The notes beneath the pieces are model-generated. The model had not been told where the DNA came from. It was given only the letters and a program-made list of their open reading frames with translations, and did no database searches. A stretch of 42,583 bases of DNA, taken from NCBI GenBank assembly GCA_947478865.1, contig CANJXF010000038.1:1-42583 (forward strand). Direction: 5' to 3'. Shown here in pieces: positions 26,410-31,909 of this stretch; within the stretch, counting starts at the first letter, position 1; each line of letters begins with the position of its first letter. A program made the translations under genes and the position numbers. The DNA is from Verrucomicrobiales bacterium. Its GTDB lineage: Bacteria > Verrucomicrobiota > Verrucomicrobiia > Limisphaerales > CANJXF01.

Positions 26410-26437
26410 GCAAATTTACAGATCCATTCACCAATTC

Positions 26438-28078
26438 TCAAGCGAGCCTATGAAGCTTGATAATTTCAGCGCATGTTTTCGGTGCAGGCTTTTCCCAAGT
26501 ACCAATGCGGCGCATGTGTTCCTGTGGTTCGTCTGCTGTTTGTTGCGGGCGAGAGAGGATGTTTAAGCTGCCTTCCCACAGAATTTTCCGGTCAATGACG
26601 GCGAATTTCTGGTGCGCTCCATTCCGTTCCTCGACTTTCACTCCGATTTTTCTCATCTGTTCAAAGAGCGATGCAGCCGTTTGACGGTTGTTGGCCGCAA
26701 CTTGTGTCAAAGGTTTTGTTACCAGCTTGATCTTAATGCCACTCTCAATTCTCGATTGAAAAAGATCAAAGAATTGCTGGCAACGACGTGCGGAAAGAAA
26801 GGGTGAAACAATGATGATGTCATTTTGTGCTCTCCATAAATCACTAAAGAACGCACCGTAAAAATTGTGCTGCGTATATGGAACGCTGTCGTTTGGATCA
26901 AATGCGTCGCTAATTGGAGAAAGGAGCCGTGCCCATTCTTCAAACGCGGAACAAGAATATCCGCCAAGTATTGTTTGACAGTCCATTACATGGCTTCCTG
27001 CGTTACGAAGTCTTTCCAGAATTCCGCGCAAAATGGCGTTCTGGTGTAATTTGGACTCCAAGTAATTTACGTTGGCGACGATTATCAATTGTGCCTTCGG
27101 TCTCGTCATAGAGACGTTGATGAGCCTAGCGCCATCGCTGGACAACTCCGCGCCGTTCGCAAACCAGGGCGTTATCGGTTCACCTTCGGCAACATCAAAG
27201 ATAATCACCTCCTGTTCGAGCCCCTGAAACTTGTGAACCGTAGAAACTTTTAGATGACGCAAATCCTCATCGCCCGAATCTTCGAGCATCTTTTTGATCA
27301 GCCGAGCTTGAGGAGCATAAGGCGAGATAACGCCCACCTCTTTGATGCCTGCTTTTGCAACTCGTCTCGCTAGTTCCGCTGAAAGCGCTGCACTATAAAG
27401 ATTATATCTGCCGGATCGTCCAACAAGTCGGCTGCTCCAAGGATTGACTGATGATACGTCGCAAAGAATCAAAGGATTGCTGCCGCAGGGAGACCGGTTC
27501 AGAATGCAATCGATATTTCGCCGTTGTTCGTTGCCAACAGAATCAATCAATTGCCCGCCGTAAAAAATCGAATTTGAAATAGAAGAAATATCTGGATGCA
27601 TTCGGTACTGTCTTCGGAGCAATGTCAGCCGCGAATCCGATTGACCATTTTCAACACCTTGCTGAATTCCGGCCTCGCTGAAAATGTCCCTCGCGAGCCA
27701 CTTCTGAACCGCCGCGCTTTCACCTTGGCAAATCGGCGCTAATTGACGGAAATCGCCAACGATCACGATTTTCTTCGCTGTTCGACATGCAGCAAAATAA
27801 ACACTGGGCAACGGCGCTATGCTCGCCTCATCCAGGATGAGAACGTCGAATTGTTGATCATCAAACTGTGAGTCTGTGGTCGCTTTGGTCAAGCTCGTGG
27901 CAATGACTTTTGCCCCTCGAAGGATTTTGTCTTTCAGTGCACAGAGTTCGCGTTCGGCTGCATGAATTTGCTCTGAGATTTCCCGTTCCTGTTTGGCGAG
28001 TTCTTGGTGCCGCTCTCGGAGAGATCCTTCGCCGAGGCGGTAGCAAGAAAGCAGCTTCTGCACTTCGTGCCACAACAC
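26438..28078 (-). CDS. Helicase-PLD protein, C-terminal part (frameshifted)
   Basis: This open frame of 546 codons holds the second half of an SF1 helicase related to UPF1/DNA2 (COG1112): a charged coiled coil (residues 18-52), motif II LILDEAS (80-86), motif III GDFRQLAP (108-115), a YRMHP motif, motif V STVHKFQGLEQ and motif VI NVSMTRPK. The last ~170 residues are a phospholipase-D-type nuclease domain with FSDLWRAQNDIIIVSPFLS and one HQK motif (His489, Lys491) in GAHQKFAVID followed by EGSLN. Motif I lies in the previous frame (27934-29286), so the two frames form one protein broken by a single-base shift near 28078. A GTG at 28078 directly follows a TGA. The region appears more AT-rich than its neighbours. 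Confidence 0.85.
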   Translation of the reverse strand: MLWHEVQKLLSCYRLGEGSLRERHQELAKQEREISEQIHAAERELCALKDKILRGAKVIATSLTKATTDSQFDDQQFDVLILDEASIAPLPSVYFAACRTAKKIVIVGDFRQLAPICQGESAAVQKWLARDIFSEAGIQQGVENGQSDSRLTLLRRQYRMHPDISSISNSIFYGGQLIDSVGNEQRRNIDCILNRSPCGSNPLILCDVSSVNPWSSRLVGRSGRYNLYSAALSAELARRVAKAGIKEVGVISPYAPQARLIKKMLEDSGDEDLRHLKVSTVHKFQGLEQEVIIFDVAEGEPITPWFANGAELSSDGARLINVSMTRPKAQLIIVANVNYLESKLHQNAILRGILERLRNAGSHVMDCQTILGGYSCSAFEEWARLLSPISDAFDPNDSVPYTQHNFYGAFFSDLWRAQNDIIIVSPFLSARRCQQFFDLFQSRIESGIKIKLVTKPLTQVAANNRQTAASLFEQMRKIGVKVEERNGAHQKFAVIDRKILWEGSLNILSRPQQTADEPQEHMRRIGTWEKPAPKTCAEIIKLHRLA

Positions 28079-29286
28079 TCAATTTCTGCGACCTTTCGTT
28101 CGATTGCAGTTTGAATTTGGTTTCGTTTGGTGAGATTTGCAGAAACCGCATCGCGAATAGCATTCAAATCGATTTGAAGTCTGGATACGTGGTTTTGAAG
28201 TTTGACCGGATCAAGTCCACGAAAGAACCTCTTCAATTTCCCGGCAGCTTGTGCATCCGTCAGATTCGTTTTGGCATCTTCCAACCCCAGAATGAGTTCT
28301 TTCTCCCGTGCCTGCAAATTTTCTCGTTCGTGAACACAACTCTGGAGATTTGTCTCCAATTTACCGAGATCTTTTTGAGACTCATCGCGCCGAGACAACC
28401 TTTCCGAAGCTGAACGCAAACAATCCAGTTCGGTGCGAACCGGAGCAAGCTGTTCTCGCAACCGTTTGATCTGTTTCTTCTGTTGCTCCCCCAATCGCTC
28501 GATAATTTTGTCCAGAATGACCATCTCTGGCAGGACAACCGTAGTACTGACATTTCCGAAACGGACCAGTTTGCCACTTTGATAGTCTTCCGTTCCTTCG
28601 AGAAGTTCAGCCGCTCTGGCAATTGCGTTGTCGGTCGCGACGTTGGTGTGCGCCACAATTAGCACGCGCAATCCGCGACGCAACAAAACGGCGACGAGAA
28701 ATCCGATCGTTTGCGTCTTTCCAGTACCTGGAGGTCCCCAAATAAAATGAATGTCGCTTCCGCAAACGGCACGAATTGCTTGAAGCTGGTCGTCGTTCGG
28801 CGGGTTCGCCGAAGACGGCAGATTTAAATCGTTTTGATCCGTAACAGAATTTGCGGATGAGGATTTAAAAAGCAGTTGCGCGAGATGAGTATTCAATTCG
28901 CGCTGCCCGCTAAGCACTTCCTCATATCGCTTCCGCAATGCTTCGAGCAGAAACCAACGATTGATAATGAGTTTCGCTTCAGGAATTGTCGTGTGAAAAT
29001 CACGCTTGATGCCAACTGCCACTTCACTGCCTTGTATAGAAACGATCTGCCCGTCGAATTCCTCGTTGCCAACTTTGATCTTTGCTGGCGCATCATCCAC
29101 CACGATCAGCGGGTTTTCGATTGTAAAAACGTAAACGAAGAATTCTCCTTCGCGTCGATTGAAACGCCCATCGTAAACTGAAGTCGATGAGCCACCGCCA
29201 TTTTGCTGAAGCGCGGCAATCTCCTCTTTCAAGGCTTGCACGAATTCGCGAAGCCGAGCTTGTTCTCCTGATGTTGGCGTCTTCAT
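27934..29286 (-). CDS. Helicase-PLD protein, N-terminal part (frameshifted)
   Basis: The 450-codon frame starts at ATG 29286. Residues 1-160 are a helical start and a beta-rich region (GRFNRREGEFFVYVFTIENP, then a barrel-like part). NDDQLQAI (164-171) is the adenine-binding Q motif and GPPGTGKT (184-191) the Walker A, followed by motif Ia VLIVAHTNVATDNA. A long coiled coil (about 270-400) is inserted between motifs I and II, as in many COG1112 helicases. The last ~45 residues (Cys-rich, then Ser/Asn-rich) do not resemble a helicase; the true continuation is in the overlapping frame at 26438-28078. Together they would make about 950 residues. This architecture is known from helicase-PLD antiphage proteins such as Mokosh type II. 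The system name is inference. Confidence 0.8.
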   Translation of the reverse strand: MKTPTSGEQARLREFVQALKEEIAALQQNGGGSSTSVYDGRFNRREGEFFVYVFTIENPLIVVDDAPAKIKVGNEEFDGQIVSIQGSEVAVGIKRDFHTTIPEAKLIINRWFLLEALRKRYEEVLSGQRELNTHLAQLLFKSSSANSVTDQNDLNLPSSANPPNDDQLQAIRAVCGSDIHFIWGPPGTGKTQTIGFLVAVLLRRGLRVLIVAHTNVATDNAIARAAELLEGTEDYQSGKLVRFGNVSTTVVLPEMVILDKIIERLGEQQKKQIKRLREQLAPVRTELDCLRSASERLSRRDESQKDLGKLETNLQSCVHERENLQAREKELILGLEDAKTNLTDAQAAGKLKRFFRGLDPVKLQNHVSRLQIDLNAIRDAVSANLTKRNQIQTAIERKVAEIECCGTKCRSCFLATASAKDLSESGTKNSPNRNGKSQSKFMQPNANSVH

Positions 29287-29357
29287 TTTGATTGCTTAGC
29301 AATCTCACTCTTACTTCAACAACGGTTTTGAACGCTGTAAGTTCGACCCTTTTTCCG

Positions 29358-29453
29358 TTACCAATCGGTCGGTGCGTAATCTTTCAGAAATTTTCCCCAG
29401 ACATCCTCGCCCGTGTTGAACCCGACGATGATTACTCTGACCCCGGCAATCAT
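29358..29453 (-). pseudogene. Displaced copy of the 3' end of the zinc-finger SDR gene
   Basis: 29358-29431 matches 30329-30402, the last ~75 bp of the SDR gene at 30329-31909, with about six mismatches and the same orientation. The frame reads [21 protein letters not shown] then stop, against [21 protein letters not shown]. It is a partial tandem duplication or the last relic of a second SDR copy. The rest of the spacer 29454-29545 has no recognisable gene; a 74-codon frame here is composite. Confidence 0.75.
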
Positions 29454-29545: not shown

Positions 29546-30168
29546 TCATTGTTTCTTTTCCCTTAGCAACGCTTCCGGCAAGGCCATAAGCTCCGCGCCG
29601 GAATCGGCACGCCAAACCACGCGACCATCCGGCAGCAGTCGGAGGATCGTTCCGCTCATCGAGCCACGCAGAGTTTTGACGCGGTCGCCGGGTTGGAGAT
29701 CGGCGGACGCACACAATTCTTCCACCATCCGCGCCATGGATTCGTGATCGAGAACGCCAGCAATAAAGTGTGCGACCCCGGACATCACTTCGCGGCGGCG
29801 AGTGGTGGGCAACTCGGCGAAGACGAAGTCAACGAGAGTCCGTCCGACGTCGGCAAACGTATTGCCGTTGAAGAAGAGAAATGGAGAGCGACGATGACAT
29901 TGTCGCAAAAACTCTATAGTTTCGTCGAGGGTGGAGATTTCTGGCTGGCGACGTCGCCATTCTGCTTCAAGCGCTGCATAGCTCTCTGAATTCTGGCCGT
30001 GCTGCGCGCCTCCTCTTGCGCACGCTCCTCGGTTGAGGCCGATGACAAGCTCCCAACTCCGGTTTTTGAGAAAAGCGGCTCGGGCTTGTAGCGGTGATTG
30101 TTCGCCAGAACTTCCTCCAAAATGTCCTGGTCGGTCAGATGCTCCAGCAGATCCAATCTCAGTTTCAT
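29546..30168 (-). pseudogene. Conserved protein of unknown function, apparently frameshifted
   Basis: Two minus-strand frames look like parts of one protein. From ATG 30168 the first reads MKLRLDLLEHLTDQDILEEV, then RYKPEPLFSKTGV and a helical EERAQEEARSTARIQRAMQR. After that it turns to low-quality sequence and stops at 29914. The second frame continues from about 29972 with LEAEWRRRQPEISTLDETIE, FNGNTFADVGRTLVDFVFAEL, a VAHFIAGVLDHESM helix, and a C-terminal SH3/KOW-like barrel (LQPGDRVKTLRGSMSGTI ... LPDGRVVW). The best junction needs one extra base near 29963-29975. Alternatively, two overlapping genes exist, but the second has no ATG in a good place. I do not recognise the family. Confidence 0.55.
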
Positions 30169-30328
30169 CGCTCATAATTTACGCCCGGTTGCATGTTTGA
30201 TTCAAGTGATGTTATCAAATGTTTTCGACGCAACAAGGCGCGGATCGTTTTTCCTTTTCAACTCTTCCATTTTTCTGCGCGTCAGCGAGAGCCGGTCGTG
30301 ACTCGTGTGCGCGCCAAGGTTTTTTACT

Positions 30329-31909
30329 TTACCAATCGGTCGGCACGTAATCTTTCAGAAATTTTCCCCAGACATGCCCGCCGGTGTTGAACCCGGCGAT
30401 GATCGGATCGACGATGCGCGCCGCGCCGTCCACGATGTCCAACGGCGGATGGAAACGGTGTTCCTGAGTTTTGCGCGCCGCGATTTGCACCGGATCTTCA
30501 TCAGTCACCCAGCCGGTATCGACCGCGTTCATGTGAATTCCGTCGGCTTGATAATCGGCGGCAGAAGTGCGCGTCATCATGTTGAGCGCGGCCTTGGCCA
30601 TGTTCGTGTGCGGATGCCGCGTTGTCTTGGATGGCCGATAGAATTGCCCCTCCACCGCCGAAACATTGACGATGTGTTTGTCGCGTTCCGGCGTGCGGAG
30701 CATCAACGATTTCAGCCGCGCATTCAGGATAAACGGCGCGACCGCATTGATCAGATGAACTTCCAAAAGTTCGACCGCTGGAACTTCCGCCATCATCAAG
30801 CGCCACGAATTTCGCTCGCGCAAATCGACTTGTTGCAAATCCTGGTCGAGTCTTCCTTGCGGAAATAAATCCTTCTGCGCCGACAGTTCATCGGGCAACA
30901 GCGGCACCTGCGATAATTCGGCGGCGTGCGTCAAACCCACTTCTGCAATGCGCCGCTCAGCCAGCGCGGAGCTTCCTTCCGGCAACATGTGGTAACCGCG
31001 CAACCCCTCGTAAGCGCCCAGCAATCGGCGCGCATTTTCCGGCATGGCGTCGAGAGAACTCGATTCGCTTGCCATCATGTGTTCATAAAAGTCTGGCGGT
31101 CGACGCACGGTTTGGCAGGCGTTGTTGATGATGAAATCCAGCCGCTCGCGTGTCGTCAGCAAATGTTTGCAAAAGGCTTCGACGCTCGGCGTGTGGCGCA
31201 AATCGAGACCGAAGATTTCCAGGCGATGCCCCCACTCCGCAAAGTCCGGTTCCTGCGCGTAACGGGCGGCGGAGTCGCGCGGGAAACGCGTCGTGACGAT
31301 GAGTTGCGCTCCGGCCCGCAAGAGTTTGATGCCGGCCTGATAACCGATTTTCACGCGCCCGCCAGTCAGCAGCGCCACGCGCCCGCGCAAATCGGCGAGT
31401 TCGCTGCGCTTGCGATAATTCAGCTCGGCGCACTCGGGGCAAAGTTGATCGTAAAAAAAGTGGATCGTCGAATAGTCGCGTTTGCAGATGTAACAATTTT
31501 GCGGCGCGATCACTTCGCGAAAATCGGGATCGTCTTTGATCTCCTGCTGTTGGAAATCCAGAGGCACATAGACATTCGGCGTCGTAAACACCGGCTTTTT
31601 TCGCAGCACACGAATTCCGGTTTGATTGAGCACACCTTGGTCGCGCTGCAATTTCTCTGCATTGCGCTGGCGAATCTGCGCTTTGCGCAAACGACGCCGA
31701 TCTACGGCGTCCGGTCGCGAAACCAATCCCGCCGCCTGAAGCAAACGAGTCCGTTCCTCTTCCGAAACTCCCGCGAGCAATGCGCGGTTTTTCGAGATTT
31801 CTTCCAGCAGCTGTGCGGCGTTGGCCAGACGCTCGGCCAACGTTTCACGCGTCGCCGTTTCGACCTCAGGGGCCGATGCATCGATAGAATTTCTTTCTTT
31901 TTTCAACAC
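30329..31909 (-). CDS. SDR oxidoreductase with N-terminal zinc finger, atypical active site
   Basis: Of its 526 residues, the first ~110 are helical and basic. A CxxC-x17-CxxC zinc-binding element follows (CYIC ... CPEC, about 140-165), then an SDR domain with a modified nucleotide loop ([15 protein letters not shown]), NNAC, and an active-site Ser in [10 protein letters not shown]. At the place of the catalytic Y-x-x-x-K, the sequence is [10 protein letters not shown], so Lys is kept but Tyr is Thr. Long inserts lie between strands 4 and 5. Similar long SDR-like proteins occur in fungi and plants (from memory). Activity is uncertain. The start is a GTG at 31909. It sits 101 bp downstream of the efflux operon on the same strand. 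Confidence 0.8.

What the first reader, a model, noticed from the sequence alone, without database searches (positions are those of the whole stretch)
26438..29286. Helicase-PLD protein, a candidate antiphage system, split by one frameshift
An SF1 UPF1-like helicase (motif I at residues 184-191 of the upstream frame, motifs II-VI in the next) plus a C-terminal PLD nuclease (HQK at 489-491) in one polypeptide is the layout of single-protein helicase-nuclease defence such as Mokosh type II. The frame changes between motifs I and II. Frame B has a TGA immediately before GTG 28078, so the switch must occur between about 28080 and 27934; a one-base loss close to 28078 fits best. No slippery heptamer is visible. 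The gene is therefore inactive, misassembled, or unusually made in two chains. The AT-richer composition suggests acquisition.
Basis: partly seen in the sequence, partly recalled or inferred. Interest (0 to 1): 0.7.

Follow-up and report, generated by a model that had tools for sequence, protein, structure and literature searches.

The report
Broken helicase-nuclease gene, probably antiphage
A probably horizontally acquired gene for a one-protein helicase-nuclease, of a type linked to defence against viruses in other microbes, lies here with a shifted reading frame and without its usual tail, so it looks like a recently disabled copy of a rare but mostly intact protein family.

Summary
Two overlapping minus-strand frames (27934-29286, 26438-28078) encode one UPF1-like SF1 helicase with a C-terminal PLD (HKD) nuclease. 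Its nearest relative, an intact 1,043-aa Verrucomicrobia MAG protein (L021, 52-54% identity), aligns across both frames with one net one-base loss near 28,068; all other full-length relatives checked are single ORFs, except L027 (broken at a different site) and L037 (broken at an assembly gap). So this is one gene split, not a two-gene design.

The window protein stops just before them, 28 bp from a convergent native gene. Both halves share low GC3 (0.48 vs 0.55-0.66), and no other genome of 320 in the order has a relative at E<=1e-20: patchy acquisition.

The intact family is an OB/stalk-RecA1-coiled-coil hairpin-RecA2-PLD-Zn-ribbon protein. Two relatives, one with a degenerate HKD, sit directly after Gabija or BREX genes. 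It works like Mokosh type II, but scores better against the MkoA helicase model than MkoC, so membership is not shown. Most likely a recent pseudogene; assembly error cannot be excluded without reads. Interest modest.

The parts
28069..29286 (-). In-frame 5' part of the helicase gene (ORF A up to the frame change): OB/stalk region, RecA1 first half, first arm and most of the returning arm of the coiled-coil insertion
   Evidence: 54% identity to L021 protein, colinear; AAA_11
28714..28737 (-). Motif I (Walker A) GPPGTGKT, residues 184-191 of ORF A
27917..28488 (-). Region equivalent to the helical hairpin insertion between motifs I and II (L021 residues 259-449)
   Evidence: position transferred from the AlphaFold2 model of the L021 protein by alignment
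28054..28078 (-). Site of the frame change (net one-base loss near 28,068)
   Evidence: frame-aware alignment to L021; tblastn bounds 28054/28000; upstream stop of frame B just before 28078
26438..28066 (-). 3' part of the gene (ORF B): motifs II-VI, RecA2, PLD
   Evidence: 52% identity to L021 protein; AAA_12, PLDc_2
27821..27832 (-). Motif II DEAS
26561..26614 (-). PLD active-site motif HQKFAVIDRKILWEGSLN
   Evidence: conserved in ten relatives
26410..26440 (-). Stop codon and 28-bp gap to the convergent gene; the family's zinc-ribbon coding region is absent here
   Evidence: no ribbon in any frame downstream; ribbon Cys present in all ten HKD relatives; convergent gene matches relatives to residue 249 of 251

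Best explanation
This is a probably laterally acquired gene for a single-chain UPF1-like SF1 helicase fused to a PLD-family nuclease. It is most likely recently inactivated: a net one-base loss inside the coiled-coil insertion separates Walker A from Walker B, and the 3' end coding for the zinc ribbons is missing. In intact relatives the helicase core (OB/stalk, two RecA domains) would move along single-stranded nucleic acid, the 190-residue helical hairpin would act as a sensing or docking arm, the zinc ribbons would grip the nucleic acid, and the single-HKD PLD would dimerise and cut it, giving nuclease-based defence against invading nucleic acid. Shown here: domain order, motifs, UPF1/IGHMBP2 fold of the helicase, frame change, missing ribbon, composition, patchy spread, two relatives beside known defence operons. 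Inferred: substrate (RNA or ssDNA), dimerisation, defence role, loss of activity.
For: Pfam and PADLOC domains; intact single-ORF relatives L021-L026, L030, L031; one clean frame change; no other stops, and equal end branches for window and L021 (0.46 each), so the lesion is young; ribbons in all ten HKD relatives but not here; GC3 unlike neighbours in both halves; no other genome of 320 in the order at 1e-20, and 1 other of 384 sampled in the class at 1e-30; relatives spread over several phyla; L026 directly after GajA-GajB and L034 directly after PglZ-BrxL; model of L021 matches IGHMBP2 and UPF1 (Z 28.5 and 27.1).
Against: No reads were available, so the frame change could be an assembly error. 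Ribbon loss alone need not inactivate: the MkoC model ends at its PLD. Most relatives' neighbourhoods scanned show no known defence gene, the window's own neighbourhood is housekeeping (nusA, infB, glyS, FtsX-type permeases), and the BREX neighbour L034 has lost the HKD histidine.
Confidence: 0.7

Rival explanations
1. Assembly or sequencing error: the gene is unbroken in the organism and encodes a functional ribbon-less helicase-PLD protein.
For: Only one frame change, no other lesion, no rate acceleration against L021; the genome is an assembly of 114 contigs.
Against: No homopolymer of 4 or more near the site, where short-read and nanopore indel errors concentrate; the missing 3' end is an independent departure from the family.
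Confidence: 0.2
2. Two-chain enzyme: ORF A and ORF B are both translated (B from GTG 28078) and pair through the coiled-coil hairpin, so that the split protein still works.
For: The split falls inside the helical hairpin, a place where chains could pair; both ORFs are long and otherwise undamaged.
Against: No relative shows a natural split here; L037's split sits on an assembly gap and L027's is elsewhere. ORF B's start lies 145 nt inside ORF A, with only AAGG about 14 nt upstream; ORF A would end in a frameshifted tail of about 44 residues; the ribbon is gone too.
Confidence: 0.04
3. Programmed ribosomal frameshifting joins the two frames.
For: The frames overlap and the needed shift is -1.
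Against: No exact X XXY YYZ site in the overlap, the best being one mismatch at 27997, past the point where the protein alignment already uses frame B; the relative is in one frame.
Confidence: 0.02
4. The family is an RNA or DNA maintenance helicase-nuclease rather than a defence protein, and the copy was lost because it was dispensable.
For: The closest folds are cellular UPF1, IGHMBP2, Senataxin and Dna2; several relatives have ordinary neighbours.
Against: Rarity and spread over unrelated phyla and the Gabija and BREX neighbours fit an accessory defence gene better.
Confidence: 0.2

Closest known systems
Mokosh type II (MkoC)
   Same: One polypeptide with a UPF1-like helicase, a long stretch between motifs I and II (profile positions about 248-288 and 669-709) and a C-terminal PLD
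   Different: MkoC model matches only motif II to PLD (profile 669-715 and 777-1107) and scores below MkoA; relatives carry zinc ribbons after the PLD; the window copy is split
Mokosh type I (MkoA helicase plus MkoB PLD)
   Same: Helicase core gives the best PADLOC score (MkoA 4.4e-44)
   Different: PLD is fused here and not a separate gene; the match starts at MkoA profile position 570, so its N-terminal part is not covered
CoCoNuT CnuH helicases (types II/III; PMC11090510)
   Same: UPF1-like helicase with a large coiled-coil insertion after Walker A and an OB/stalk
   Different: No McrB/McrC-type gene among the neighbours scanned; the nuclease is a fused PLD
UPF1 / IGHMBP2 / Dna2 (eukaryotic SF1B)
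   Same: Helicase fold, Z 25-28 over about 530-575 residues
   Different: Those lack the PLD, the ribbon tail and the 190-residue hairpin; Dna2's nuclease is of another family (established knowledge)

Membership tests
SF1 UPF1-like helicase | Motifs I, II, III and later motifs in two RecA domains | tested here: met
   AAA_11/AAA_12 and motif positions, across two frames
SF1 UPF1-like helicase | UPF1/IGHMBP2 fold | tested here: met
   Intact relative L021 modelled: Z 28.5 to 4b3f, 27.1 to 2wjv; the window protein itself was not folded
PLD nuclease | HxKx4Dx6GSxN motif and PLDc_2 profile | tested here: met
   HQKFAVIDRKILWEGSLN; PLDc_2 34.7 bits against 27
Mokosh type II (MkoC) | Helicase and C-terminal PLD in one polypeptide | tested here: inconclusive
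   True of relatives L021, L022, L024 and L026; in the window the polypeptide is split between two frames
Mokosh type II (MkoC) | MkoC profile matched over its length and better than other Mokosh profiles | tested here: not met
   Best stretches cover 669-715 and 777-1107 of 1136; MkoA scores higher for window ORF B and for all seven relatives scanned
Mokosh type II (MkoC) | Anti-phage activity | not testable with these tools
   Needs an experiment
Helicase-PLD-ribbon subfamily defined here | C-terminal Topo1-type zinc ribbon after the PLD | tested here: not met
   Cys-rich tail present in all ten HKD relatives, absent in the window copy
CoCoNuT (type II/III) | Neighbouring McrB/McrC-type genes | tested here: not met
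   Window neighbours are S1/CvfB, spermidine synthase-like, SDR and FtsX-type genes

The most novel reading that the evidence does not exclude
The intact relatives form a defence family of their own: single-chain UPF1-like helicase, coiled-coil hairpin, HKD nuclease and zinc ribbons, distinct from Mokosh type II and sometimes added to Gabija or BREX loci as a back-up effector. The window shows a recently disabled copy.
Probability: 0.3. Interest if true: 0.5.

Novelty: new variant of a known kind. Interest (0 to 1): 0.3.

Why it matters
If true, it shows a helicase-nuclease gene of defence type caught soon after inactivation, and it points to an intact, patchily spread helicase-PLD-zinc-ribbon family that current defence models catch only through their helicase part. 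The family offers a clear test of what the coiled-coil insertion and ribbons add to Mokosh-like proteins. The window copy itself is of limited interest.

Tried and rejected
Natural two-gene arrangement: rejected; L021-L026, L030 and L031 are single ORFs, L037's split is at an N gap, L027's break is elsewhere. Programmed -1 frameshift: no exact heptamer. Ribbon in another frame downstream: none; the DNA there belongs to the convergent gene. Conserved empty site in relatives: flanking genes are not syntenic in the relatives found, so no empty site could be shown. Close homologue for a selection test: none in the order, and the nearest is 53% identical, so no dN/dS. Plasmid DNA relatives: none; viral contigs: none for the L021 protein, and with the alignment only two weak helicase-only matches. 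A solved structure of the PLD-ribbon part was not found by sequence (best E 0.13, topoisomerase ribbons); the fold search list was filled by the helicase, so the PLD and ribbon folds were hardly tested.

Full report
Observation. Two overlapping minus-strand ORFs are present as described: A, 27934-29286, 450 aa, and B, 26438-28078, 546 aa. A carries GPPGTGKT at 184-191 and the first part of AAA_11; B carries the rest of AAA_11, AAA_12 and PLDc_2, with the motif HQKFAVIDRKILWEGSLN at 489-506. This is well beyond chance (AAA_12 at 3e-32, PLDc_2 above its curated cut-off).

One gene, one frame change. The nearest relative, L021 (contig JABDGH010000032.1, titled Verrucomicrobia bacterium; the same sequence is found in G564, a genome of the window's class), is a single ORF. 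Its residues 85-488 match frame A at 54% and 507-1023 match frame B at 52%, numbered from its first possible start. There are no internal stops on either side. The overlap holds no homopolymer of four or more and no exact slippery heptamer. In a tree of 20 proteins the window and L021 are sisters (100/100) with equal end branches of 0.46, so the window copy shows no sign of long decay.

A second difference. The intact relatives L021, L022, L024 and L026 carry a Topo1-type C4 zinc ribbon after the PLD; in L026 it is just under the Pfam cut-off. In the 13-row alignment, two of the ribbon cysteines are invariant, and all ten relatives with a full HKD motif have six to nine cysteines in their last 120 residues. 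The window protein stops at KLHRLA, just before the ribbon. The next 28 bp lead into a convergent gene whose C-terminus is conserved in relatives, so the ribbon is not out of frame but missing. That points to a 3' truncation at the junction with native DNA.

Origin. GC is 0.48-0.49 over the gene against about 0.54 around it. GC3 is 0.475 for A and 0.479 for B, against 0.55-0.66 for the neighbours (in that output the columns for B and glyS are rotated by one phase, because their stretches began one base off the codon, so B's third position is the column headed GC2). Both halves share the same unusual value, as expected for one acquired gene. Only one copy exists in the genome. No other genome of 320 in the order has a relative at 1e-20; in the class sample of 384 only the L021 genome does at 1e-30. 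Relatives occur in Bacillota, Omnitrophota, Planctomycetota, Ignavibacteria and a Hodarchaeota bin.

Likely mechanism of the intact family. The AlphaFold2 model of L021 (mean pLDDT 79, 13-row alignment) shows a beta-barrel at 25-100, RecA1, a helical hairpin at 259-449 between Walker A (176) and Walker B (478), RecA2, a PLD domain at about 802-937 and a poorly modelled ribbon tail (motif positions). The helicase aligns to IGHMBP2 and UPF1 at Z 28.5 and 27.1. The frame change falls at about residue 398 of L021, in the returning arm of the hairpin. I infer translocation on single-stranded nucleic acid, ribbon-aided binding, and cutting by a PLD dimer, since one HKD per chain usually implies a dimer (established for this superfamily).

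Defence link. PADLOC gives MkoA and MkoC matches. L026's gene follows GajA and GajB directly, and L034's follows PglZ and BrxL directly, though L034 has lost the HKD histidine. Other neighbourhoods scanned show no clear known system. The defence role is therefore likely but not shown.

Comparison. It works like Mokosh type II. It is not shown to be a member: the MkoC model is matched only from motif II to the PLD, MkoA scores higher in ORF B and in all seven relatives scanned, and the ribbon tail is extra. The post-Walker-A coiled-coil insertion resembles CnuH of CoCoNuT systems (PMC11090510), but no McrBC-type neighbours were found. One paper states that Mokosh degrades viral transcripts (PMC11291487); a 2026 review lists its mechanism as unknown (PMC12926258).

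Verdict. A real, probably acquired, most likely recently inactivated helicase-PLD gene. Assembly error remains possible until reads are checked.

Noticed in passing
29350-29432 and 30321-30403: An 83-bp direct repeat (90% identical): the 3' end of the SDR gene (30329-31909) is duplicated about 64 bp upstream of the helicase start, with ORF 29546-30175 between the copies. It may mark an insertion or recombination boundary.
   Followed up: partly
29546-30175: A 209-aa protein with no Pfam or PADLOC match but with scattered relatives (54-75% identity) in the same order, some with stops inside; not next to the SDR gene elsewhere.
   Followed up: partly
L027:406-3476: The next closest relative is also broken, at a different site (between its equivalents of L021 residues 575 and 593), in a Bacillota bin.
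   Followed up: partly
L032:5116-7758, L034:5068-7668, L042:649-3453: Relatives that keep the helicase and Cys-rich tail but have lost the catalytic histidine of the PLD, suggesting a nuclease-dead branch or another role.
   Followed up: no
L037:3612-5585: Tandem repeats inside the coiled-coil insertion, running into an N-filled gap, split this relative artificially.
   Followed up: yes
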